Assembly (NCBI RefSeq): GCF_016904885.1
Contig: NZ_JADWYI010000001.1
Span: 2,170,001 to 2,234,000, forward strand
Origin: Archangium primigenium
Lineage (GTDB): Bacteria; Myxococcota; Myxococcia; Myxococcales; Myxococcaceae
Reading direction: 5' to 3'
DNA: 64,000 nucleotides
Position 1 is the first letter of the stretch; each line of letters starts with the position of its first letter. The notes below the pieces were generated by a model. It was given only the letters and a program-made list of their open reading frames with translations, was not told the origin of the DNA and did no database searches. The position numbers and the translations under genes were made by a program. Of this stretch, positions 41,100-64,000 are shown piece after piece.

Positions 41100-42419
41100 T
41101 CAGGGCGGCGCCACGTCCTGAAAGGGGAGCACCCAGGTGTGCGTGCCTTGCCAGGGGCTCACCGTGGCCAGGTTCACGCTCGGGTCCACGAGCCGCTGTC
41201 GGGGCCGACCATTGAGGCTCGCGAAGGCGTTCACCCGCACCTCCACGTCCGGATGGCCCTTCTCGGCGAAGTCCCGCGCCAGGTAGTGCGCGAACGTGAG
41301 CAGCATGTCCGGCTGCGTCGCCATCATCTTCACCTGGTAGGGCGCGAGGTACTTGCTCGGCGACACCACCCACCACTTGCCCGTGGCGGGCTCGCTCACC
41401 CGGAACTCCGCCACGCCGTCCTTCTCCATCAGCATGACGTTCCACGAGAAGCGAAAGCCCTCCTCGGTCCACATCACGTCCCCCGGGTAGAGCAGGTGCC
41501 GCAACGGCAAGAGGCACTGCACCCCGAGGAACGTGACCGCCAGCACCGGGCCCGTCCACGCACGCCGTACGGGGACGGCCTCCCGGGGGGGCTCCACCCG
41601 CGCGCCCCGCCGTGCCCACGCCGCGAGCCGCCTCGGCCAGTCCGGTGGGAAGAAGAGCAGGGCGCCGGAGATCATCACCCAGGGGAACATGCCGATGGGG
41701 AAGAGGATGCGCGTGATGACGTGGAAGACCACCACCGCCGCGAAGGCGAACGGCCGCGTGCGCCGCCATAGCAGCGCGGGCACCACGCTCAAGTCGAACA
41801 GCGCGCCGCCGATGCTGAACGCGTGCGGTACCCAGGACCACTCGAAGAAGCGTCCCAGCACCGGCAGATCCGTGCTCGCCCGGAGCCAGATCTTCAAGGG
41901 CTGGGCATGCCAGAGCCAATCACTCTTGAGCTTGGCCACGCCGCCAAAGAGATACACGAGCCCCACCTGCGCCCGTAGCAGCCATAGCCACCACGCGGGC
42001 ACGGCCTCGCGCTTTCCCACGCTTCCCAAAGGCAGGCACACCATCACCAGCCCCACGAGCGAGATGAAATAGTAATGGTTGAGGTAGTACGTGCGGTCGA
42101 TCAGATGCGCGTACGTGAACGTGAGCAGAAAGAGGATCGCGCTCGCCCGGTACGCCACGCCCGCGGCGATGCCCAGCGCGCCCAGGCCCATGAGCGCGAA
42201 GTGCAGGTACATGCCCTCGCGCGGCCAGGGGCGGATCCACTCCAGGCCCGCGAAGGGGAAGAGCACCTGGGGGGCGAGGTAGTGCTCCTCGATCCACCCG
42301 TAGGCGAAGAAGCGCGCGACGGCCACCGCCATCAGCAGCCCGAACAGCACCCGCCACACCGTCAGCGAGGCCGGGTCCACGGGCGCGAACAGCCGCGCGC
42401 GCGCCCGCTCAATCTCCAT
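41100..42419 (-). CDS. HTTM / vitamin K-dependent carboxylase-like membrane protein
   Basis: This 439-residue protein has several membrane helices in its first 300 residues and a soluble C-terminus. The pattern ARLFAPVDPASLTVWRVLFG, TYYLNHYYFI and VYLFGGVAKLKSDWL is that of the HTTM domain, named for its horizontally transferred transmembrane helices and shared with vitamin K-dependent gamma-carboxylases. The Lys in GGVAKL lies where the carboxylase active-site base is expected. The substrate is unknown. It overlaps the imelysin gene by 11 bases, so it belongs to the metal-acquisition-type operon. HTTM genes are often near imelysin genes, but the reason is unknown. Confidence 0.85.
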   Translation of the reverse strand: MEIERARARLFAPVDPASLTVWRVLFGLLMAVAVARFFAYGWIEEHYLAPQVLFPFAGLEWIRPWPREGMYLHFALMGLGALGIAAGVAYRASAILFLLTFTYAHLIDRTYYLNHYYFISLVGLVMVCLPLGSVGKREAVPAWWLWLLRAQVGLVYLFGGVAKLKSDWLWHAQPLKIWLRASTDLPVLGRFFEWSWVPHAFSIGGALFDLSVVPALLWRRTRPFAFAAVVVFHVITRILFPIGMFPWVMISGALLFFPPDWPRRLAAWARRGARVEPPREAVPVRRAWTGPVLAVTFLGVQCLLPLRHLLYPGDVMWTEEGFRFSWNVMLMEKDGVAEFRVSEPATGKWWVVSPSKYLAPYQVKMMATQPDMLLTFAHYLARDFAEKGHPDVEVRVNAFASLNGRPRQRLVDPSVNLATVSPWQGTHTWVLPFQDVAPP

Positions 42420-43515
42420 CGTTGTCGTTGAACTTGAGCGTCACGCCCAGGTTGGACACCACCTCGGTGGCGAGCGTGGCGCGCAGCGTGGAGAAGGCGG
42501 CCCGGGCGGCCTCCACCGACTCGCGGTTCTCCAGGAGCGCCGTGCGCAGCGGCGGCGGAATGGCCTCGAGCGCCCCGCGCAGCCGCGAGAGGTCCGCGCG
42601 CACCGTGCCGTCCAGCTTCTTGTTGGTGGAGGCCACGATGCCCGACAGGCCCGATTTGCCGTCCGCGCCGAACCACAGCCGCTCCATGCCGGCGACGTTG
42701 GCCCGCAGGTCCGCGATCGAGTTGTCGCTGCGCCGCGACCGCTCCTCGTCGGGACGCACCGTGCCGCCCGTCTCGAAGCCCAGGGGCTTGCTCAGCTTGA
42801 GCTCGGCCACCTCCACCGAGGAGATGAAGCGGTTGACGACCTCGTCCACCGCGTCCTTCTGCGTCGCGTAGCGGATGCTCGACACGCCCGCGTTGGCCAG
42901 GCGCGACACGAAGTCGCCGCCGTCCGGCTCCCACGCGGTGCGCACCGCCGTGGCGTCATTGTGCAGCACCTCGCCGAGCGCCCGGGCATAGGCGCGGCGG
43001 CGCGTGCCCGGCTCACCCTCGGCGGTGAAGCGCGCGAGCACCGCGGCACTGCCCTCCTTCGCGTCGAAGAGCAGGTACTCCAGCGCCATCATCCCCTTGC
43101 GGTTGGTGCCCAGCTGCTCGACGTTCTCCACCGTCAGCTTGGTGGTGCTCGTGAGCACGCTGTCGATGCCACTGGGCGACGACACCTGATCCACCGCGGA
43201 GACCGTGCGCAGGTTCTCCGAGGGGCCGATGCTCATGACCGCCAGCATGCCCCAGGGCTCGCGCACCGCGCGCCAGGCCGTCTGCGCCTGGGTGAGGGTG
43301 GCCTCGGTGGGGGTGGCGTCGAGCGCGTCGAGCGCCGTGGCCAGCGTGGCCGAGCGCGTGTCGAAGTCGCGGTACGCGGGGAGGATGGTGTCCTCGCCCA
43401 GGCTCTTGAGGAAGGCCGTGCGCAGGGTGGTGCCCTGGGCCTCGCCACAGCCCGACAGGGCGACGAGCGGCAGCACCACGGTGGCGGTCAGCAGGCGGCG
43501 AATGGTGGGGTTCAC
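42409..43515 (-). CDS. Imelysin-family lipoprotein with altered metal motif
   Basis: This 368-residue lipoprotein starts with GTG at 43515, overlapping the DUF1111 stop as GTGA. The lipobox is LSGC near residue 23. The fold matches imelysin (peptidase family M75-like, IrpA/IcmP group), with two similar helical halves. The family motif GxHxxE reads GMMALEYLLFD here, so Met replaces the conserved His. Imelysins are linked to iron uptake, and the altered motif suggests different ligand binding. It lies between the DUF1111 gene and the HTTM gene. Confidence 0.85.
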   Translation of the reverse strand: MNPTIRRLLTATVVLPLVALSGCGEAQGTTLRTAFLKSLGEDTILPAYRDFDTRSATLATALDALDATPTEATLTQAQTAWRAVREPWGMLAVMSIGPSENLRTVSAVDQVSSPSGIDSVLTSTTKLTVENVEQLGTNRKGMMALEYLLFDAKEGSAAVLARFTAEGEPGTRRRAYARALGEVLHNDATAVRTAWEPDGGDFVSRLANAGVSSIRYATQKDAVDEVVNRFISSVEVAELKLSKPLGFETGGTVRPDEERSRRSDNSIADLRANVAGMERLWFGADGKSGLSGIVASTNKKLDGTVRADLSRLRGALEAIPPPLRTALLENRESVEAARAAFSTLRATLATEVVSNLGVTLKFNDNDGD

Positions 43516-44891
43516 AGGGACTCCAGGAAGCGCAGCAGCGCGGCGCGCTCGGGGGCGGACAGGTGGCGGAAGTGCTCGCGGGCCCGCTCGGCCTCGCCAC
43601 CGTGCCAGAGGATGGCCTCCTCCAGCGAGCGCGCGCGCCCGTCGTGCAGGAAGCGGGTGTGGCGGTTGACCGTCTTCACCAGCCCAATGCCCCAGAGCGG
43701 CGGCGTGCGCCACTCGCTCCCGGTGGCCTCGAAGTCCGGGCGGCCGTCGGCCAGGTCCGGCCCCATGTCGTGCAGGAGCAGGTCCGTGTACGGGAAGATG
43801 ACCTGGCCGGACAGCTCGGGCGCGTCCGCCATCGTGCCCGTCTCGTGGCGCGGCACGTGGCAGGACGCGCAGCCCGCCTCGCGGAAGAGCGCGCGGCCCT
43901 CGAGCACCTCGGGCTCGTTCGGCTCGCGGCGCGCGGGCACGGCGAGCATGCGCGTGTAGAACGTCACCTGCTCCAGCTTGCGCGCGTCCAGCTCGGGTTC
44001 GCCGCCGTTGGGCGCCGCGCGGCAGGCCTCCTGCGCCGGAGGACAGTCATGGGTGGGGAACAGGTCCGAGGTGATGCCCAGATCCCCTCGGAACGCGCCC
44101 GCGTTCTGGTGCTGGAGCGAGGGCTTGTTGGCCTTCCAGCCGAAGCGGCCCACGCGCGTCGCGCGGTGCTCCACGTCCCAGACGTGGTTCACGCGACCGG
44201 AGATGCCATCTCCGTCCCGGTCCTCGGGGTCCGCGAGCGCCTCCAGCCGGGCCTCGGGAATGGCCTCCAAGAGGCCCAGGCCCACCATCACCGGCGCCAC
44301 GCGCGGGCTCATCATCAGCTGGGGATGGGGCGGCCCGAACGCCAGGTCACGCAGGGTGTACTGGGGCACTTCCAGCGACCAGGGCGTGCCGTCCGCGTAC
44401 TGGCCCGGGCGCTCGGTGCGGCCGAGCTCCACCCAGCCCTCGGCGGGCACGCCCAGGATGGCGAGCGGCTGGAGCTGCCCGCCGTAGACGGGATCCTCCA
44501 GCGGTCCGCCGTACGCGTCCTCGCCGGGGATGCTCAGCCGGAAGAGCAGCGCCTGGGCCTTCTCGCCCGGCTCGGTGGGCGGCTTGCCGCGCCCATCCTT
44601 GAAATGACATGCGGCGCACGAGGCGGCGTTGAACGTGGGGCCCAGGCCGTCGAGCCCCTCGGTGGACGCGGGCGCCGTCACCCAGTTGCGGTTGAAGAGC
44701 GCGTTGCCCACGAAGAACGCATCGCGCCGCTCGCCCTGGAGGTTGCGGGCCACCAGGGTGAAGGCGTTGCGCGTGGTGTCGTGGACGGTGGTGGCCCCGC
44801 CCGGCAGCTCCTCGCCGGGCTCGGGTCCTTCCTCTTCACGCTCGCCGCCACAGGCGAGCAGACAACACAGGGTGATGAGCGCGCGCCGCAT
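43512..44891 (-). CDS. Di-heme DUF1111 oxidoreductase-like lipoprotein
   Basis: This 459-residue protein has a short lipoprotein signal (MRRALITLCCLLACGG). It has two c-type heme sites, CAACHFKDGRG near residue 98 and CASCHVPRHETG near 345. Sequence stretches such as GRFGWKANKPSLQHQNAGA, PYTDLLLHDMGPDLADG and WGIGLVKTVNRHTRFLHDG mark the DUF1111 family, sometimes called thiol or di-heme oxidoreductase and distantly related to cytochrome c peroxidases. The genomic pairing with imelysins is known in many bacteria and suggests a redox step in iron handling. It lies nine bases after the first imelysin gene. Confidence 0.88.
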   Translation of the reverse strand: MRRALITLCCLLACGGEREEEGPEPGEELPGGATTVHDTTRNAFTLVARNLQGERRDAFFVGNALFNRNWVTAPASTEGLDGLGPTFNAASCAACHFKDGRGKPPTEPGEKAQALLFRLSIPGEDAYGGPLEDPVYGGQLQPLAILGVPAEGWVELGRTERPGQYADGTPWSLEVPQYTLRDLAFGPPHPQLMMSPRVAPVMVGLGLLEAIPEARLEALADPEDRDGDGISGRVNHVWDVEHRATRVGRFGWKANKPSLQHQNAGAFRGDLGITSDLFPTHDCPPAQEACRAAPNGGEPELDARKLEQVTFYTRMLAVPARREPNEPEVLEGRALFREAGCASCHVPRHETGTMADAPELSGQVIFPYTDLLLHDMGPDLADGRPDFEATGSEWRTPPLWGIGLVKTVNRHTRFLHDGRARSLEEAILWHGGEAERAREHFRHLSAPERAALLRFLESL

Positions 44892-44900
44892 GTCGGGAGG

Positions 44901-46067
44901 TCACTCCAGGTTGAGCGTGATGCCCAGCGCGGTGGCCACCTCGACGAGCGTGTCCGTCTGCGCGCGCAGGGCGTCGATGGCGGCCTTCACCTTCTGCCGC
45001 CCGGGGCTGCTGTCCGCGCCGAGGATAGCCTGATCGAAGGGCGCCGGAATGGCCCGGATGGCGTCCAGGCTGGCCTTCAGGCGAGCCTTCATCTTCTGGT
45101 CCAGCGCGGGGTTCACCGCGGCCACCAGCGTGCTCAGGCCCTGGCCGGACACCGAGCCGTACGCGCCCAGGTACACGTTCTGGATGCCCAGCGCGTTGTT
45201 GTAGAGGTCCTGGTGCGTGTTGTCGCTGAAGCAGGAGTGCTCGTCCTCCTGGTCCTTGTTGTCGTAGGCCACCGCCATGCGCTCACCGGCGAGCTCAGCG
45301 CCGCTCAGGCTGCCCAGGCCGGTGAGGATCTTCAGCACCGCCTCCTTGGGGGCCTCGGCGGTGAAGCGCCGCGCGTAGTTGTCCTGGCCGGGCGCCCACT
45401 GCACCTGCACGGACTCCAGGTCCTCGATGAGCTGGCGCGTGGCGAGCGTGAGGTACTGCCGGCGGCGGTCGGCGTTGGGGCGCGTGCCCCCGTCCACGAA
45501 GTCCGTGAACGGCCGGTCACCCGGGCCCGTCTCGGACGTGTCCTCGCCCCACAGCAGGAACTCGATGGCGTGGTAGCCCGAGGAGATGTTCACCTCGCTG
45601 TCGCGCTCGTTGGCCTCCAGCAGGGTGCCCTGGGTGAGGCTGGGGTAGTTCACCGTGTCGGCGATGATGCCCACGGTGTTGGAGCCCGCCGCGCCGTCGA
45701 TGTAGTTCTCGTCCAGCGGCCAGGCGTTGATCTGCCCCTCGGGGCCGTCGTCCTCGTTGTCGATGGGGCCGCCGTAGAAGCGGAACGCCTCGCTCTGGCC
45801 GTAGGAGTCACGCGCGGCGAGCCACGCCGTGCGCGCGGCCTCCAGGCGCTCCTTGCTGGGGCTGGCCACGAAGGCGTCGATGACCGTCTGCATCGCCTTG
45901 GCCTGCTTCACCGCCTCCGTGTAGTTCGCGTACGTCAGCGCCGCGTAGTTCTGGATGACCGGCCGCGCGCTCTGCTCGGGGAGCGGATCCACCACCACCG
46001 CGTCCTCTCCACAGCTCGTGAGCAACAGCGCGCCCGTCATCAGTGCGACCCACCCGTGCTTCTTCAT
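44901..46067 (-). CDS. Imelysin-family lipoprotein with canonical GxHxxE motif
   Basis: This 388-residue lipoprotein has the signal MKKHGWVALMTGALLLTSC with lipobox LTSC. The imelysin signature SSGYHAIEFLLWGED (near residue 162) contains the canonical GxHxxE metal motif. The downstream RRRQYLTLATRQLIEDLE helix is also typical. Members are periplasmic or surface proteins induced in low iron and thought to bind metal or heme-type ligands. GAGGAG five bases upstream fixes the start. It is the first gene of a four-gene operon (imelysin, DUF1111, imelysin, HTTM). Confidence 0.92.
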   Translation of the reverse strand: MKKHGWVALMTGALLLTSCGEDAVVVDPLPEQSARPVIQNYAALTYANYTEAVKQAKAMQTVIDAFVASPSKERLEAARTAWLAARDSYGQSEAFRFYGGPIDNEDDGPEGQINAWPLDENYIDGAAGSNTVGIIADTVNYPSLTQGTLLEANERDSEVNISSGYHAIEFLLWGEDTSETGPGDRPFTDFVDGGTRPNADRRRQYLTLATRQLIEDLESVQVQWAPGQDNYARRFTAEAPKEAVLKILTGLGSLSGAELAGERMAVAYDNKDQEDEHSCFSDNTHQDLYNNALGIQNVYLGAYGSVSGQGLSTLVAAVNPALDQKMKARLKASLDAIRAIPAPFDQAILGADSSPGRQKVKAAIDALRAQTDTLVEVATALGITLNLE

Positions 46068-46102
46068 GGCGACTCCTCGTGACTTGGAATTGGCAGGGGC
46101 TC

Positions 46103-46128
46103 CTATTGAATCTGCGAAGCAAAGTCAA
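46103..46128 (-). promoter_or_regulatory. Candidate promoter of the imelysin operon, built on the previous terminator
   Basis: On the minus strand the T-tract of the upstream terminator reads TTTTTGACTTTG and contains TTGACT (46128-46123), a good -35. CAATAG follows 14 bases later, a poor -10 at short spacing. The translation start is 36 bases beyond. I find no clear Fur box. The arrangement would let the operon start where the previous one ends. Confidence 0.3.
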
Positions 46129-46157
46129 AAACGGTCGCCCCGTGCGAGCGGCGACCG
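46125..46157 (-). terminator. Intrinsic terminator of the RCC1-RCC1-DUF1111 operon
   Basis: On the minus strand CGGTCGCC and GGCGACCG (plus 46132-46139 and 46150-46157) form a perfect 8-bp stem with a 10-base loop. TTTTTGACTTT follows directly. It begins 10 bases after the DUF1111 stop, so it separates the two DUF1111-containing operons. Confidence 0.85.
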
Positions 46158-46167
46158 AGCGCGGACC

Positions 46168-47606
<1,439 letters not shown>

Positions 47607-47610
<4 letters not shown>

Positions 47611-49049
47611 GGCCACTCCACCCGGAGGGGCACGGCGGAGCGGGAGGCGCCGGACGAGGACGTGCTCGCGCCAAGCTGCCCGCTGGTGTTGGCGCCCCAG
47701 GCGAAGCACGCGTCCGGCCCGGTGAGCGCCAGCACGTGCAGCGAGCCCGGCCCCACCGCGCGCGCGGCCCCGAGGCCCTTCACCTGCACGGCGCGGGGAC
47801 GCTCGGCGGTGGTGCCGTCGCCGAGCTGGGCGTTGGAGTTCTGCCCCCACGCCCAGAGCGCGCCCGTGGCCGAGAGCGCGAAGCTGCTGTGGGCCTGGGC
47901 GGACACGGACTCGGCGCCGGTGACGTCCAGCACCTCCACGGGCTGGGCGCGGCCTCCGAGTATGCCGCTCTTGCCCTGGCCGAGCTGCCCCGAGGAGCCC
48001 ATGCCCCAGGCACGCACGCGGCCATCCTCGCCCAGCGCCAGCACATGGGCCCGGCCGGCCGCCACGTCCACCACCCGCTCCAGGTGCGTCACCTGGAAGG
48101 GCTCGGGGTGGGGCGCGTCGTCCACCTCGCCGTTGCCGAGCTGCCCGTCGCCATTGGAGCCCCAGACGAACACGGCGCCATCCGCGCGCAGGGCCACGGA
48201 GTGCGCGCTGCCCGCGGCCACGCGGACGATGCGGTCGAGCCCCGGCACGCGGGTGGGTCCATCCACGGTCGTGGTGGAGCCGAGGCCCAGCTGGCCCGCG
48301 GCATTGGCCCCCGCGGCGAGCACCGTGCCATCCGCGAGCAGCAGGAGCGCGTGCGCGCCCCCGAGGGACGCGCCCACCACCGGCGCGGGCGTGGGAATGC
48401 GCGTGGGGACGTGGGCCGCCTCGCGTGGGGGCACCAGGCCCTGGGGCAGCGAGCCCCACGCCCAGGCGCTCCCGTCCTCCTGGAGCACGAGTGTCCCGGA
48501 GGCGCCCGTCACCACGGTGCTCACCCGGTCGAGTCCCGGCACGGACGCGGGGCGGACGGGGCCCGTGTCCGTCCGCCGCCCGAGCTGGCCCGCGCCATTG
48601 TCTCCCCAGGTGTACAGCTGGCCGTCGCGCACGGCGGCCGAGTGGGACAGACCTCCGGCGAGGGGGCTGCCCAGCACGAAGCGCACCTCGGCCACGCCCG
48701 TGTTGCCCGCGGCGTCCACGGCCTCCACGCGCAGCACGTTGGCGCCGGGCCGGGGCGTGCCCTCGAGGGTGAAGTCGCCCGTGGGGGACAGGTCCACCGG
48801 GGCCTGGCCATTGAGGGACCACGCGGCGCGCACCACGCCCCGGTCATCCGCGAGCGTCCCGTGCGCACGGAACTGGTACACCGCGCCCACCTGGCCTTCG
48901 CGCGGCGAGAGCAGGCGGACCTCGGGGGCCTGGGTGTCGGGCGGGGTCGGGGCCTCGGGGGGAGGCGGGGACGGGACTTCCGGCGCGGGGCCACAGGCCG
49001 CGGCCACGCCCAGCAGCAGCAGGGCCAGTCCCCGACGGGCGCCGCTCAC
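47607..49049 (-). CDS. RCC1-repeat lipoprotein, second of a pair
   Basis: This 480-residue lipoprotein starts with GTG at 49049, overlapping the previous stop as GTGA. The lipobox is AAAC near residue 19. A Pro-rich linker and an Ig-like domain (about residues 40-125, TQAPEVRLLSPREGQVG) precede six or so RCC1 repeats: SHSAAVRDGQLYTWGDNGAG, AHSVALRADGAVFVWGSNGD and similar. RCC1 repeats form seven-bladed propellers used for protein or ligand binding; in myxobacteria many are secreted. It is translationally coupled on both sides. The partner of the propeller is unknown. Confidence 0.9.
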
Positions 49050-50635
49050 GGCAGCACCACCCGCTGCGGCAGGGGGTAGGCCCAGTTCTCCAGCAGGTCC
49101 GCGCGGCCCAGCGAGCCCTTGGCGCTCCAGCCCCAGGTGTACACGGTGCCGTCCGGGTGCAGGGCGACGACATGGGTGGCGCCGGGCGTCACGTCGGCGA
49201 GGCCGAGCAGCGGCTCGGCGGGCGCCACGCGCAGCAGCACCGGGGTGGTGGGCACCGACAGCTCCGTGGTGTCGCCCGTGCCCAGCTGGCCGTTGAAGTT
49301 CTGGCCCCAGCCCCACAGCGAGCCGTCCCGGCGTCGGGCGAAGCTCATGTTCCCCTGGGCGTGCACGGAGATGGCGTCGGTGATGGCTTGCACCGGGGCG
49401 GGCGTGGCGCGCTGGCTGTCCTTGCCGCCCTGGCCGTCGCCGAGCTGGCCGCTGGCGTTGAGGCCCCAGGCGGACAGGGTGCCGTCGCGGTGCAGCGCGA
49501 GCACGTGGTCGCGGCCGTTGGCGATGTCCACCACGTCCGTGAGGCCGGGCACCCGCACGGGCTCGGGGTGGTTGTCCGCGTCGGCCGCGCCGGAGCCCAG
49601 GTTGCCGTAGCTGTTGCGGCCCCACACCCAGACGGTGCCATCGGCGCGCAGGGCCGCCGAGTGCTGCGAGCCACCGAGCACGCGCACCACGTCGGTGAGG
49701 CCCCGCACGGGCACCGGGTAGGTCTTGTCCTCGGTGGTGCCGTCGCCGAGCTGCCCGTTGTTGTTCTTGCCGAAGGCGGACACGTGGCCGTCGCGGTGGA
49801 GCACGAGCATGTGCGTGTAGCCGATGGCGGCCATCACCGCGTCGGAGATGCCGGGCACGCGCGTGGGGATGTCGCGCGGCAGGGTATCCGGGGGGCCGGG
49901 CCGCCCGATGCCGAGCTGGCCGCTGCCGTTGTCACCCCACGTGTACACCGAGCCGTCCGCCCGGAGCGCCAGCGAGTTGTTCTGCGCGATCACCAGCGTG
50001 GCCACGTCGCTCAGGACCGTCACCTTCACGGGCGCGTTCGTGTCCGTGGTGCCGCCGTGGCCGAGCTGGCCCCGGTTGTTGCGGCCCCAGGTGTAGAGCG
50101 TGCCCTCGCGGATGACGCCGCTGTGCAGGCCGCCCGCGCCCGTCTGCGTGCCGAAGAGGAAGGACACGGTCTGCTCGCGCTCGTTGCCGTGGATGTCCCG
50201 GCTCACCAGCACCAGCGTGTTGAGGCCCGGCCGGGGCTTGAGCTCCACGCTCAGCTCGTGGCGCGTGGCGCCCTGGGGCTCGCGCTCGCCGTGGGCGGTG
50301 TCCGCGTTGAGCTTCCAGCCGATGAAGGCGATGCCCGACGCGTCCGTCACCGTGCCCGTCAGCTGCACGCGCCACGTGCTGGGCCGCGTGTCCGCGCTCG
50401 GCGAGGTGAGGGTGATGACCGGCGCCTCCGTGTCCTTCTGGGGCTCGGGCGGCGGCGGCTCGGTGGGCGGCTGGGGCGGGGACTCCGGGCCCGGTCCGGG
50501 CTCCACGGGCTCCGTCGTTCCCGGCGCCTCCGGCTCCGAGGACCCGGGCGGCGTCGAACCCCCACAGGCGGCGCCGGTCAGCGCCAGCGTGAGCAGGAGG
50601 GCATGAAATTTGAAATTGATTCGCAGTATCGACAT
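49046..50635 (-). CDS. RCC1-repeat lipoprotein, first of a pair
   Basis: This 529-residue lipoprotein has signal MSILRINFKFHALLLTLAL and lipobox TGAAC. A Pro/Glu-rich linker (PGPGPESPPQPPTEPPPP) leads to an Ig-like domain (near residues 80-165). Seven RCC1 repeats then follow to the end, for example NSLALRADGSVYTWGDNGSG and DHVLALHRDGTLSAWGLNAS. The layout is the same as its neighbour, so the two are tandem paralogues. ATG 50635 was chosen; an upstream ATG at 50659 would extend the signal by eight residues. It is the first gene of the operon with the second RCC1 and DUF1111. Confidence 0.9.
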   Translation of the reverse strand: MSILRINFKFHALLLTLALTGAACGGSTPPGSSEPEAPGTTEPVEPGPGPESPPQPPTEPPPPEPQKDTEAPVITLTSPSADTRPSTWRVQLTGTVTDASGIAFIGWKLNADTAHGEREPQGATRHELSVELKPRPGLNTLVLVSRDIHGNEREQTVSFLFGTQTGAGGLHSGVIREGTLYTWGRNNRGQLGHGGTTDTNAPVKVTVLSDVATLVIAQNNSLALRADGSVYTWGDNGSGQLGIGRPGPPDTLPRDIPTRVPGISDAVMAAIGYTHMLVLHRDGHVSAFGKNNNGQLGDGTTEDKTYPVPVRGLTDVVRVLGGSQHSAALRADGTVWVWGRNSYGNLGSGAADADNHPEPVRVPGLTDVVDIANGRDHVLALHRDGTLSAWGLNASGQLGDGQGGKDSQRATPAPVQAITDAISVHAQGNMSFARRRDGSLWGWGQNFNGQLGTGDTTELSVPTTPVLLRVAPAEPLLGLADVTPGATHVVALHPDGTVYTWGWSAKGSLGRADLLENWAYPLPQRVVLP

Positions 50636-50690: not shown

Positions 50691-52208
50691 TCAGGGCGCC
50701 ACGCAGGTGAAACTGTCCGCGAGGTTCGGATTGCCGGCGCCGGAGTAGCGCGGATAGAGCGGGTACTTGCAGACGGGGCGGGAGAGGACGGGCGCGCCCG
50801 TGGCATCCGGCGTGTGGGCGAGGAGCGGGGTGCGCGAGGGGGGCACGCCGCGCTCCACCCAGGTCTCCAGCGCGGAGAGCCAGTCCACCTGGTTGGGGCC
50901 CGGGCCGGGGATGCCGCCGCAGTGGTGGACGCCCGGGGCGGGGAAGTACTCCACGAAGGTGTCCGCCTGGGCCTGTCCTCCCGCCGCGCGCACCACGGCC
51001 TCGTAGTACGCGTCCGTGCCGCGCGAGCTGATGATGCCGTCGGCGCTCCCGTGCCGGAGGATGAGCTTGCCGCCCCGCGCCCGGAAGCGGCTCAGGTCCG
51101 GGTCGAGCGCGGACACCTGGGCCGTCACCTCCGCGATGCGCTCGCGCCACGCGCCGGGCTGGAAGCGCAGCGGGTCGAAGCCGGGGTCCCGGGTGATGAA
51201 GTAGCGGATGAGCTCGCGCGAGAGGACCTGGCCCGCCGAGCGCTCGAAGTCGCCCGGCTCCAGCCGCCACGCGGCCCAGCCGCCCGGATCCTCCGCGTCT
51301 CCCACCGGCCAGCCCGGGTAGAGCACCTGCCCGTCGACCACCACGGGGGCGGCGAGCGCGCGGGCCGAGGCCACCTGGGCGGGCGTCAGGCACGTGTCGC
51401 GCTCCGGGCCCTGGCACTGGAGGACGCCGGGGTCGAACGCGCAGCCGGGGTGGGAGACGATGCCGTCGGCGAGGCCGTCCTTCGCGTCACAGGCGGCGAG
51501 CATCGCCTGGCCCAGGTGCGAGAGCTGGGCGCGCGAGGGCAGGGCGCCCGGGAGCGCGAGCCGCTGGGCGTGCTGGTTGAACGCGAGCATCAGCGACACG
51601 AAGTCGTGCGCGGGCGCGTGGATGACGAGGCCGTCGAAGTCCTCGGGCCAGCGCTGGGCGGCGATGAGCCCCTCGCGCCCGCCGTTGGAGCAGCCCTCGA
51701 AATACGTCTTCGTGGCGTCCTGGCCGTAGTGCGCGCGGATGAGGGCCCGGGCCACGGGCAGCACGCGGTGCACGGACAGGGAGGCGAAGTCCTCGAGCGG
51801 CCCGGGCTCCAGCGCGAACGCGCCCTGGGCGGGTGTGCCGGTGTGGCCACCATCCGAGGCGACCGAGGCATAGCCCCGGGCGAGGTTCTCGTCCGCGGGG
51901 AAGATGACGCCGTCATAGCCGCCCCCCCCATTGTAGACGGTGCGGCCATTCCACCCGGTGGGCAGCCGCACCTCGAAGTGGAGCGAGGGCGGCAGCTCGC
52001 CCCGCACCCGGCAGTACTCCGGCACGGGCCCCTGGGCGGGCACGCGCGTGGCCTGGGTGAGCGTGGCGCCCTGCACGGCGAGGGCGGCGAGGCGCTCGCA
52101 GTCGGGGGCGCGGGCCTCGGGAGCGGCGGAGGGGGAGTGGGTGCAGGCGGCCACGCCCAGCAGCAGCGTGGCGAGGGTGGAGCGCGAGGCGCCGGGGAGC
52201 GGGGACAT
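50691..52208 (-). CDS. Tannase/feruloyl-esterase-family lipoprotein
   Basis: This 505-residue protein has a lipoprotein signal with lipobox GVAAC near residue 22. It has the fungal tannase/feruloyl esterase pattern. The nucleophile is in EGCSNGGREGL, the acid in HGSADGIIS and the histidine in GVHHCGG. The Cys before the Ser and the Cys after the His form the family's characteristic disulfide (CS-D-HC motif). Such enzymes cleave esters of phenolic acids, fitting plant-derived or aromatic substrates. It lies 10 bases after the histidine phosphatase gene and was probably co-transcribed. Confidence 0.88.
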   Translation of the reverse strand: MSPLPGASRSTLATLLLGVAACTHSPSAAPEARAPDCERLAALAVQGATLTQATRVPAQGPVPEYCRVRGELPPSLHFEVRLPTGWNGRTVYNGGGGYDGVIFPADENLARGYASVASDGGHTGTPAQGAFALEPGPLEDFASLSVHRVLPVARALIRAHYGQDATKTYFEGCSNGGREGLIAAQRWPEDFDGLVIHAPAHDFVSLMLAFNQHAQRLALPGALPSRAQLSHLGQAMLAACDAKDGLADGIVSHPGCAFDPGVLQCQGPERDTCLTPAQVASARALAAPVVVDGQVLYPGWPVGDAEDPGGWAAWRLEPGDFERSAGQVLSRELIRYFITRDPGFDPLRFQPGAWRERIAEVTAQVSALDPDLSRFRARGGKLILRHGSADGIISSRGTDAYYEAVVRAAGGQAQADTFVEYFPAPGVHHCGGIPGPGPNQVDWLSALETWVERGVPPSRTPLLAHTPDATGAPVLSRPVCKYPLYPRYSGAGNPNLADSFTCVAP

Positions 52209-62486: not shown

Positions 62487-64000
62487 ATGATCCGAGGACT
62501 GAAGTCCTGGTGTGTCTGTGTTTTGTCGTTGTCGGCGGGCCTGTCCGTGGCCGCTCCTTCACCCCTGCCCGAGGCGGAGGCCCTCGCGGCGGAGGCGGGC
62601 GCGCTGAAGGGCCGCGCGCCGGGTCGCGCGACCCTGGCGGTGGGGGCGGACCATTCGCTGGCGGTCGCCCTGGACGGCACGGTGTGGGCCTGGGGTGACA
62701 ACTCCATTCGTCAATTGGGGGTGTCGGACTCCTGGTCCGTGCGGACGCGGGCCGCGCCGACCCGGGTGCCGGGTTTGACGAACATCGTCTCCGTGGCGGC
62801 GGGTCAGTATCACAGTCTGGCCTTGGGCGCGGACGGCCGGGTCTGGTCCTGGGGCGACAACATGTTCGGACAGTCGGGTCAGGGGAGGATCGACACCTGC
62901 GTGTTTGGCTGCCTCCCCGCGCTCGTTCCAGACCTGTCGGGGGTGGTCGCCATCGCGGCCAACGGGGAGTATTCCCTGGCCTTGAAGGCCGATGGCAGTG
63001 TGTGGGGCTGGGGGGTCTCGTCTCACGCACAGCTCGGTGTCTATGAATGGGCGCTCTTCGAGCCCACCGCCATTCCGGGGGTCTCCGAGGTGACGTCCCT
63101 GGCGGCCGGCATGCGGCATGTGCTGGCCACCCGCCGGGATGGCGCGGTCTGGGCGTGGGGCGCCAATCACCTGGGTCAGCTGGGGCGTGGGGTCGTGCAC
63201 GGCCCGGGCTATCCCGGGCCCGTCCCGGGTTTCACGGGAGGGTCGTCCGTCGCGGCGGGTGAGTCCCACAGTCTGGCCTCGCGGTGGGACGGCTCGGTCT
63301 GGGCCTGGGGCCAGGGGTCGGTGGGAGAGTTGGGGTTGGGTGACCCGGCGACCGCGCCTCGGACCTCTGCCGTGCGCGTGCCCGGGCTCTCGCTCGTGCG
63401 GGACGTCGTGGCGCGGCAGCGCTCCAGCTTCGCGCTGCGGTGGGATGGAACGGTCTGGGGCTGGGGGCTCAACACCGGGCATCAGCTCGGGCACCTGCCG
63501 GCGGAGAACCAGGTCACGCCCGTGCGGCTCCAGGGGCTCCAGGGCATCGTGGAACTCGCGAGTGGGTCCGCGCATGGGCTGGCCCGTGACTGGACCCAGT
63601 CCGTGTGGGGCTGGGGCGATGACACCCAGGGCCGGGTGGGACTGGGCTCCGCGTGGCGGCTCGAGCCCGTCGTGCTGCCCGGGCTCCAGGACGTGGTCAA
63701 GACGGCGCCCTCGCTGGCGCTGCGCGCGGACGGCTCGGTCTGGTCCTGGGCGGAGGGCGCGCCGCCCGCGCGCGTCGCGGGGCTCACCCACGTCGTGGAT
63801 GTGGCGCGGTGGAATGGGGAGGGCCTGGCCGTGCGCGCGGATGGCTCGCTGTGGCGCTGGAGCGCGACCCAGGCGCCCCAGCCCGTGCCGGGTCTGTCCG
63901 ACATCGTGGCGCTGTCCGTCACCTCCCATGTGCTCGCCTTGGGCCGGGACGGACGGGTGTGGGCCTGGGGGTTCAACCAGTCGGGCCAGCTGGGCGACGG
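62487..64000 (+). CDS. RCC1-repeat secreted protein, cut by the window end
   Basis: The frame starts at ATG 62487 and is open to the end of the window (504 codons and more). A signal peptide begins MIRGLKSWCVCVLSLSAGL and is likely cleaved after SVAA. At least nine RCC1 repeats follow with little linker, for example DHSLAVALDGTVWAWGDNSI, QYHSLALGADGRVWSWGDNM and SHVLALGRDGRVWAWGFNQ. No lipobox is present, unlike the two RCC1 lipoproteins at 47-50 kb, and the repeats begin about 45 residues from the start. It is probably a secreted beta-propeller. The ribosome site (GAGC) is weak. Confidence 0.85.
   Translation, partial: MIRGLKSWCVCVLSLSAGLSVAAPSPLPEAEALAAEAGALKGRAPGRATLAVGADHSLAVALDGTVWAWGDNSIRQLGVSDSWSVRTRAAPTRVPGLTNIVSVAAGQYHSLALGADGRVWSWGDNMFGQSGQGRIDTCVFGCLPALVPDLSGVVAIAANGEYSLALKADGSVWGWGVSSHAQLGVYEWALFEPTAIPGVSEVTSLAAGMRHVLATRRDGAVWAWGANHLGQLGRGVVHGPGYPGPVPGFTGGSSVAAGESHSLASRWDGSVWAWGQGSVGELGLGDPATAPRTSAVRVPGLSLVRDVVARQRSSFALRWDGTVWGWGLNTGHQLGHLPAENQVTPVRLQGLQGIVELASGSAHGLARDWTQSVWGWGDDTQGRVGLGSAWRLEPVVLPGLQDVVKTAPSLALRADGSVWSWAEGAPPARVAGLTHVVDVARWNGEGLAVRADGSLWRWSATQAPQPVPGLSDIVALSVTSHVLALGRDGRVWAWGFNQSGQLGD

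What the first reader, a model, noticed from the sequence alone, without database searches (positions are those of the whole stretch)
41100..50635. Two adjacent DUF1111 operons linking di-heme enzymes, imelysins, RCC1 propellers and an HTTM carboxylase-like protein
Imelysin-DUF1111-imelysin-HTTM is a recurring metal-acquisition-type set of unknown chemistry. Beside it a second operon couples a paralogous DUF1111 to two RCC1-repeat lipoproteins by 4-base overlaps. RCC1 propellers as partners of di-heme enzymes are, to my knowledge, not described. Together the genes may form a surface redox system that captures iron or modifies a secreted peptide, with HTTM as the modifying enzyme.
Basis: partly seen in the sequence, partly recalled or inferred. 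Interest (0 to 1): 0.68.

Follow-up and report, generated by a model that had tools for sequence, protein, structure and literature searches.

The report
Propeller-paired di-heme enzyme beside imelysin cassette
A bacterium carries a conserved gene pair in which a wheel-shaped RCC1 protein is made together with a two-heme redox enzyme, next to a known kind of iron-linked gene set; the pair recurs in its phylum and is fused into one protein in a relative, so the two parts very probably work together, though their chemistry is still unknown.

Summary
All seven genes are on the minus strand: RCC1-A, RCC1-B, DHOR-B (DUF1111), a 100-base gap, then imelysin-1, DHOR-A, imelysin-2, HTTM. The second set is a known kind of imelysin/di-heme cassette. 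The first is the interesting part. An RCC1 gene lies directly upstream of one DHOR subfamily in 21 of 40 fetched Myxococcota loci and in 7 of 7 genomes with strong RCC1 hits in a second draw (one already known). In one relative the two are a single 1067-residue frame. DHOR-linked RCC1-A proteins share a terminal-blade tryptophan signature: 29 of 29, against 0 of 25 unlinked RCC1 ORFs whose C-terminus is held. The DHOR-B model has the bCcP/MauG/hydrazine-synthase-gamma fold, which has a propeller partner in hydrazine synthase. In the papers I found, such a pair is mentioned once, in Leptospira, where both genes rise with H2O2 (PMC7567364). My reading: a 1:1 RCC1-DHOR redox complex (inferred) that became a neighbour of the imelysin cassette in this genus. 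HTTM keeps the carboxylase catalytic Lys and His; its substrate is unknown. The chemistry is unproven.

The parts
49046..50635 (-). RCC1-A: lipoprotein-like N-terminus, sub-threshold Ig-like match, RCC1 propeller with terminal-blade Trp signature (alternative start 50659)
47607..49049 (-). RCC1-B: RCC1 propeller protein, 42% identical to RCC1-A, without the Trp signature
46168..47610 (-). DHOR-B: di-heme oxidoreductase (DUF1111/PF06537), two CxxCH, bCcP/MauG-type predicted fold
46136..46150 (-). weak terminator-like hairpin with T run between the two sets
   Evidence: not above chance
44901..46067 (-). imelysin-1 (Peptidase_M75, GxHxxE, sub-threshold LruB match), lipoprotein-like
43512..44891 (-). 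DHOR-A: imelysin-linked di-heme oxidoreductase
42409..43515 (-). imelysin-2 (Peptidase_M75), lipoprotein-like
41100..42419 (-). HTTM plus VKGC lumenal domain; vitamin K gamma-carboxylase homologue with the GGCX K218 and H160 equivalents (K163, H115)

Best explanation
RCC1-A and DHOR-B are two parts of one envelope redox unit. DHOR-B is a di-heme enzyme of the bCcP/MauG superfamily that binds an RCC1 beta-propeller lipoprotein, probably 1:1, with the propeller's Trp-rich last blade at or near the joint. It most likely uses peroxide (or O2) to oxidise its partner or a captured metal or organic substrate. RCC1-B is probably a diverged duplicate. In this genus the unit has become a neighbour of a conserved imelysin-DHOR-imelysin cassette with a gamma-carboxylase-like HTTM protein, a kind of cassette linked to iron uptake in other bacteria. 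Shown: gene order, linkage, fusion, shared Trp signature, predicted fold. Inferred: the physical complex, the peroxide chemistry, the link to iron.
For: RCC1 directly upstream of DHOR in 21 of 40 fetched loci, 20 with a 4-base overlap if the nearest ATG/GTG/TTG is taken, 7 of these by TTG. A natural RCC1-DHOR fusion in G094, the DHOR part by eye without a signal peptide. In a draw of 282 genomes from G175's phylum, 7 of 7 genomes with a hit at E <= 1e-40 have DHOR next to it; G175 itself was known, so 6 are new; rpoB puts these inside Myxococcota. RCC1-linked DHORs lie on one side of the tree (29 plus two orphans, support 0.84). Trp signature in 29 of 29 RCC1-A and 0 of 25 unlinked ORFs with C-terminus held. 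DHOR-B model pLDDT 93, pTM 0.90; VIA Z 16.5 to hydrazine synthase gamma, 16.3 to bCcP, 15.7 to MauG. Hydrazine synthase pairs such a subunit with a beta-propeller. An invariant DHOR Trp aligns with a bCcP Trp. In Leptospira an RCC1/two-heme pair and an imelysin operon are both induced by H2O2. The two systems are also neighbours in G200 and G220, close relatives of each other. One RCC1-RCC1-DHOR operon is followed by a TonB receptor.
Against: No interface was predicted: no complex prediction was available and the RCC1-A model is poor (pLDDT 63). The fusion was seen in one genome only. The propeller of hydrazine synthase is not described as RCC1 in the passages I saw. RCC1-B lacks the Trp signature (0 of 6). 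Other neighbours of RCC1-DHOR vary (secretion ATPase, GH92, citrate transporter), so an iron role is not general. The sigma-70-type scan found no promoter-like site. The Leptospira genes could not be checked by sequence here; that its two-heme protein is a DHOR is my inference. Of 42 genomes searched with the fusion, one showed a pair in the listed rows, and the list was cut.
Confidence: 0.55

Rival explanations
1. Maturase and substrate: DHOR-B works like MauG or MbnH and chemically modifies tryptophans in the last blade of RCC1-A, making a cofactor or a metal site; RCC1-A is the working protein.
For: Fold match to MauG and to a MauG-like protein associated with copper homeostasis; three invariant Trp in the terminal blade, a motif not found in unlinked RCC1.
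Against: The Trp could be structural; a fusion suits a permanent complex at least as well as a one-off maturation; the MauG axial Tyr was not assigned.
Confidence: 0.2
2. All seven genes form one iron-capture system: RCC1 and imelysins bind iron, both DHORs oxidise it, HTTM makes gamma-carboxyglutamate metal sites on the imelysins.
For: Adjacency in 4 of 4 genus members and in a second lineage, G200/G220; imelysin cassettes are Fur-responsive elsewhere; HTTM keeps the catalytic Lys and His in 24 of 24 sequences.
Against: RCC1 was found in 0 of 80 imelysin loci of the scan; another genus of the family (G142) keeps the two operons far apart; no HTTM-specific Glu columns in the imelysins.
Confidence: 0.2
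3. Neutral neighbours: RCC1 and DHOR are inherited together by operon inertia with no physical or functional tie.
For: RCC1 genes are common in this genome (7 ORFs, counted).
Against: Same order across deep lineages, the fusion, the subfamily match and the Trp signature.
Confidence: 0.05

Closest known systems
Imelysin / DUF1111 cassette (P. aeruginosa PA4370-PA4373; Leptospira LruB operon)
   Same: imelysin, DHOR, imelysin in the same order; GxHxxE in the first imelysin; seen in records of many phyla
   Different: ends in HTTM here and in 22 of 80 scanned loci; one Burkholderiales locus checked has DUF1513 instead; RCC1 in 0 of 80
Leptospira LIMLP_07150-07145 (RCC1 and two-heme thiol oxidoreductase)
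   Same: RCC1 gene directly upstream of a protein with two heme-binding cytochrome c-like domains, both induced by H2O2 (PMC7567364, passages)
   Different: one RCC1; locus tags far from the imelysin operon; sequence not compared here
bCcP / MauG / MbnH superfamily
   Same: predicted fold, two CxxCH, aligned Trp and, weakly, a C-terminal HDG motif
   Different: separate Pfam family; 463-residue model against chains of about 300-360; no close solved relative by sequence; partner is an RCC1 propeller
Hydrazine synthase gamma and beta subunits
   Same: MauG-like di-heme subunit in a complex with a seven-bladed propeller
   Different: propeller not called RCC1 in the passages seen; an alpha subunit was not sought here
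EfeUOB
   Same: imelysin domain with a heme peroxidase in one operon
   Different: no Ftr1-type permease among the seven genes; EfeO model far below cut-off

Membership tests
DHOR (PF06537, DUF1111) | profile match over cut-off | tested here: met
   317.7 and 336.4 bits, cut-off 22
DHOR (PF06537, DUF1111) | two c-type heme motifs CxxCH | tested here: met
   positions 113 and 362 in DHOR-B, 92 and 341 in DHOR-A; 96 of 98 DHORs compared have at least two
bCcP/MauG superfamily | shared fold | tested here: met
   VIA Z 15.1-16.5 over 220-255 residues for HZS gamma, bCcP, MauG and a MauG-like protein; Foldseek alone gave two hits at E <= 0.001
MauG (TTQ maturase) | modifies Trp of a partner | not testable with these tools
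   needs biochemistry
MauG (TTQ maturase) | Tyr axial heme ligand | not tested
   no residue-level structural alignment available
Imelysin cassette (ICMP/LruB type) | imelysin-DHOR-imelysin order | tested here: met
   same order in other loci
Imelysin cassette (ICMP/LruB type) | GxHxxE in the first imelysin | tested here: met
   G164, H166, E169 invariant in 8 of 8 aligned sequences
Imelysin cassette (ICMP/LruB type) | Fur / iron regulation | not testable with these tools
   no expression data; no Fur-site search was run
LruB equivalog (NF047655) | score over cut-off | tested here: not met
   imelysin-1 164.1 bits, cut-off 850
EfeO (EfeUOB) | equivalog score over cut-off | tested here: not met
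   16.1 bits, cut-off 270
Vitamin K gamma-carboxylase | HTTM plus lumenal domain | tested here: met
   PF05090 and PF22777 over cut-off; human GGCX E 7e-44
Vitamin K gamma-carboxylase | catalytic K218 and Glu-pocket H160 | tested here: met
   K163 and H115 by hand-counted alignment, invariant in 24 of 24; roles in PMC12589487 (passages)
Vitamin K gamma-carboxylase | Glu substrate carboxylated | tested here: inconclusive
   no HTTM-linked Glu columns in imelysins, two in DHOR, no more than other residues
RCC1 propeller | RCC1 repeats over cut-off | tested here: met
   7 and 6 repeats

The most novel reading that the evidence does not exclude
RCC1-A is a new kind of protein-derived cofactor carrier: DHOR-B, a MauG-like di-heme enzyme, oxidises the conserved tryptophans (W501, W503, W518) of the propeller's last blade with peroxide, creating a Trp-derived redox centre or metal site at the cell surface. 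It would stand beside MauG with methylamine dehydrogenase (recalled) and the hydrazine synthase gamma/beta pair as another di-heme/propeller pairing, and would give bacterial RCC1 proteins an enzymatic role.
Probability: 0.18. Interest if true: 0.85.

Novelty: new variant of a known kind. Interest (0 to 1): 0.57.

Why it matters
DHOR (DUF1111) proteins occur in 82 of 146 Myxococcota genomes searched, and I found no solved structure close in sequence. A propeller partner, fused in one genome, with a specific Trp signature gives a concrete handle on what these enzymes act on, and links bacterial RCC1 propellers to di-heme chemistry in a directly testable way.

Tried and rejected
Glutamates specific to HTTM-bearing cassettes as carboxylation sites: none in the imelysins; two in DHOR, no more than other residues. 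RCC1-DHOR in other phyla: draws from the phyla of G168 (246 genomes), G151 (349), G153 (296), G157 (301) and G167 (288) gave 24 RCC1 hits in 19 genomes. Thresholds were 1e-35 or 1e-40 and only the top few candidates per genome were scored. My first checks used short flanks that held 400 or more bases downstream for only 9 of 24, so I fetched 23 wider regions: 0 of 23 hold a DHOR and 0 of 25 RCC1 ORFs the motif, with C-terminus and 600 or more downstream bases held for 20 of 25. G168 is labelled Planctomycetota but its rpoB groups with Myxococcota, so that draw's phylum is uncertain. I found no way to reach Leptospira sequence with these tools. First rpoB tree discarded: antisense ORFs had been taken; redone. 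First DHOR clade count mislabelled the window row; redone. IQ-TREE failed and timed out, so only FastTree results are used. RCC1-A model too weak to use. PHROGs gave RCC1 and tail-protein hits for RCC1-A and none for DHOR-B. Paper searches: imelysin with HTTM gave none; RCC1 with imelysin gave one; RCC1 with 'thiol oxidoreductase' gave three, of which I saw passages of the Leptospira one and only the listing of the others; LruB with carboxylase gave one, listing only; MbnH/MauG terms gave none.

Full report
What is there. The seven genes lie on the minus strand as described. Order of transcription: RCC1-A (50635 or 50659 to 49046), RCC1-B (49049-47607), DHOR-B (47610-46168), a gap of 100 bases, imelysin-1 (46067-44901), DHOR-A (44891-43512), imelysin-2 (43515-42409), HTTM (42419-41100). 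Pfam supports every name; HTTM also carries the vitamin K carboxylase lumenal domain. The six proteins other than HTTM start with a signal-like stretch and an early Cys, read by eye as lipoprotein-like. The genome (9.49 Mb) holds 3 imelysins, 3 DHORs and, counted by me from the matches, 7 RCC1 ORFs.

The imelysin set is a known kind. As far as the contigs reach, 78 of 80 hold a DHOR, 62 of 80 a second imelysin, 22 of 80 an HTTM and 0 of 80 an RCC1; in L115 the DHOR is distant and in L134 only a fragment. PMC3143127 (passages) describes the imelysin-DUF1111 link and Fur control in Pseudomonas. PMC5609570 (one passage) lists a TonB-receptor/gamma-carboxylase/imelysin group among Fur-affected genes of Riemerella. 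In one Burkholderiales locus checked, DUF1513 follows the second imelysin; I recall it, from no call, as a predicted propeller family.

The RCC1-DHOR pair is the interesting part. DHOR occurs in 82 of 146 genomes drawn from the phylum; the match list was cut. I fetched 40 loci picked by hand, mostly from the top of that list plus a few lower rows, so they lean towards high-scoring hits. In 21 of 40 an RCC1 gene is directly upstream on the same strand: 20 with a 4-base overlap if the nearest start is taken (7 of these need TTG), one (L053) with an 8-base gap. In one more (L069 = L251, G094, a one-contig genome) RCC1 and DHOR form a single 1067-residue stop-to-stop frame, RCC1 at 168-633 and DHOR at 640-1067. 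In the other 18 no RCC1 was found. Searching 42 of the 80 imelysin-bearing genomes with the fusion showed one pair, in G175, in a list that was cut. A draw of 282 genomes from G175's phylum with the RCC1 part gave 7 genomes at E <= 1e-40, G175 among them, and all 7 have DHOR next door; in G239 the order is RCC1-RCC1-DHOR, as in the window. An rpoB tree puts these seven inside Myxococcota, in several branches. Five other draws (1480 genomes in all) gave 24 weaker RCC1 hits; 0 of 23 wider regions around them hold a DHOR.

Subfamily and signature. In a tree of 98 DHORs all 29 RCC1-linked ones lie on one side of a split (support 0.84) with two orphan DHORs, one of them this genome's third; 24 of the 29 form one clade (0.888). 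In the smaller first tree DHOR-A groups with other imelysin-linked DHORs (0.972), not with DHOR-B. The two are 58% identical over 436 residues, so the split is old but not extreme. Linked RCC1-A proteins keep W501, W503 and W518 in 29 of 29. The motif WGW-x3,4-G[ST][LF]G-x6,9-W is in 29 of 29 RCC1-A, 0 of 6 RCC1-B and 0 of 23 unlinked ORFs, but 11 of those 23 are cut at the C-terminal end. With the wider regions it is in 0 of 20 ORFs with C-terminus held, plus 0 of 5 whole unlinked ORFs of this genome, 0 of 25 together. The motif was written from the linked sequences, so 29 of 29 is partly by construction; the absence elsewhere is the test. In the fusion this last blade runs straight into DHOR.

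How the two operons met. In G142, another genus of the family, a histidine phosphatase gene stands directly upstream of imelysin-1, and its own RCC1-DHOR pair lies about 9 Mb away. In the window and three congeners RCC1-RCC1-DHOR-B sits between them. With one outgroup genome, the adjacency looks derived in this genus. In G200 and G220, close relatives of each other, an RCC1-DHOR pair lies under 2 kb from an imelysin-DHOR pair. In G239 RCC1-RCC1-DHOR is followed about 70 bases on by a TonB receptor, with another TonB receptor some 3.6 kb upstream. Against a general iron role, other pairs have unrelated neighbours.

Mechanism. The DHOR-B model is good (pLDDT 93, pTM 0.90; 46 aligned sequences). 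Foldseek gave two significant hits, hydrazine synthase gamma and a bCcP; VIA-align gives Z 16.5 to hydrazine synthase gamma, 16.3 to bCcP, 15.7 to MauG and 15.1 to a MauG-like protein tied to copper homeostasis, within 1.4 of each other. A profile search aligns the invariant DHOR Trp (GWKAN) with a bCcP Trp, at E 7e-4 for the best bCcP; that this is the Trp between the hemes I recall. Hydrazine synthase joins a MauG-like subunit to a seven-bladed propeller (PMC12607021, PMC12758564; passages). That methylamine dehydrogenase's large subunit is a propeller, and that MbnH makes kynurenine in MbnP, I recall. In Leptospira, at a lethal H2O2 dose, the RCC1 gene and the two-heme gene downstream rise (log2 about 5 and 2.2), as do LruB, a neighbour with one cytochrome c-like domain, and a second imelysin; both imelysins are also reported up under iron limitation (PMC7567364, passages). 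I therefore commit to a 1:1 RCC1-DHOR redox complex using peroxide (0.55). Whether the RCC1 Trp residues are relay, interface or substrate is open.

HTTM. It matches human GGCX at E 7e-44. The equivalents of K218 and H160, counted by hand on that alignment, are invariant in 24 of 24 bacterial HTTMs. In GGCX K218 is the base that deprotonates vitamin K hydroquinone and H160 helps hold the Glu (PMC12589487, passages). A carboxylase-type reaction is plausible, but a search for HTTM-linked Glu positions found none in the imelysins.

Noticed in passing
window 50691-52208 (-): A tannase/feruloyl esterase gene lies between the histidine phosphatase and RCC1-A; it gave no tblastn hit in the three congener loci examined (L040, L042, L044), so it looks like a later insertion.
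   Followed up: partly
window 62600-64000 (+), continuing as L255: Another RCC1 protein runs off the window end; no Trp signature, and the DHOR search of this genome puts none there.
   Followed up: partly
L248:6314-7723 (-): A 470-residue protein that looks like an outer-membrane barrel by eye, without a Pfam match, precedes the imelysin in the G200 lineage where both DHOR systems are neighbours.
   Followed up: no
L078:8001-10406 (-): This genome's third DHOR carries an N-terminal carbohydrate-binding module (CBM_56), suggesting a DHOR that acts near a polysaccharide.
   Followed up: no
L131 / G168: A MAG labelled Planctomycetota whose rpoB groups with Myxococcota; mislabelled or contaminated.
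   Followed up: no
L087:13618-14838 (+): DUF1513 follows the second imelysin in a Burkholderiales cassette without HTTM; if it is a propeller, as I recall, propellers recur as partners of DHOR cassettes.
   Followed up: partly
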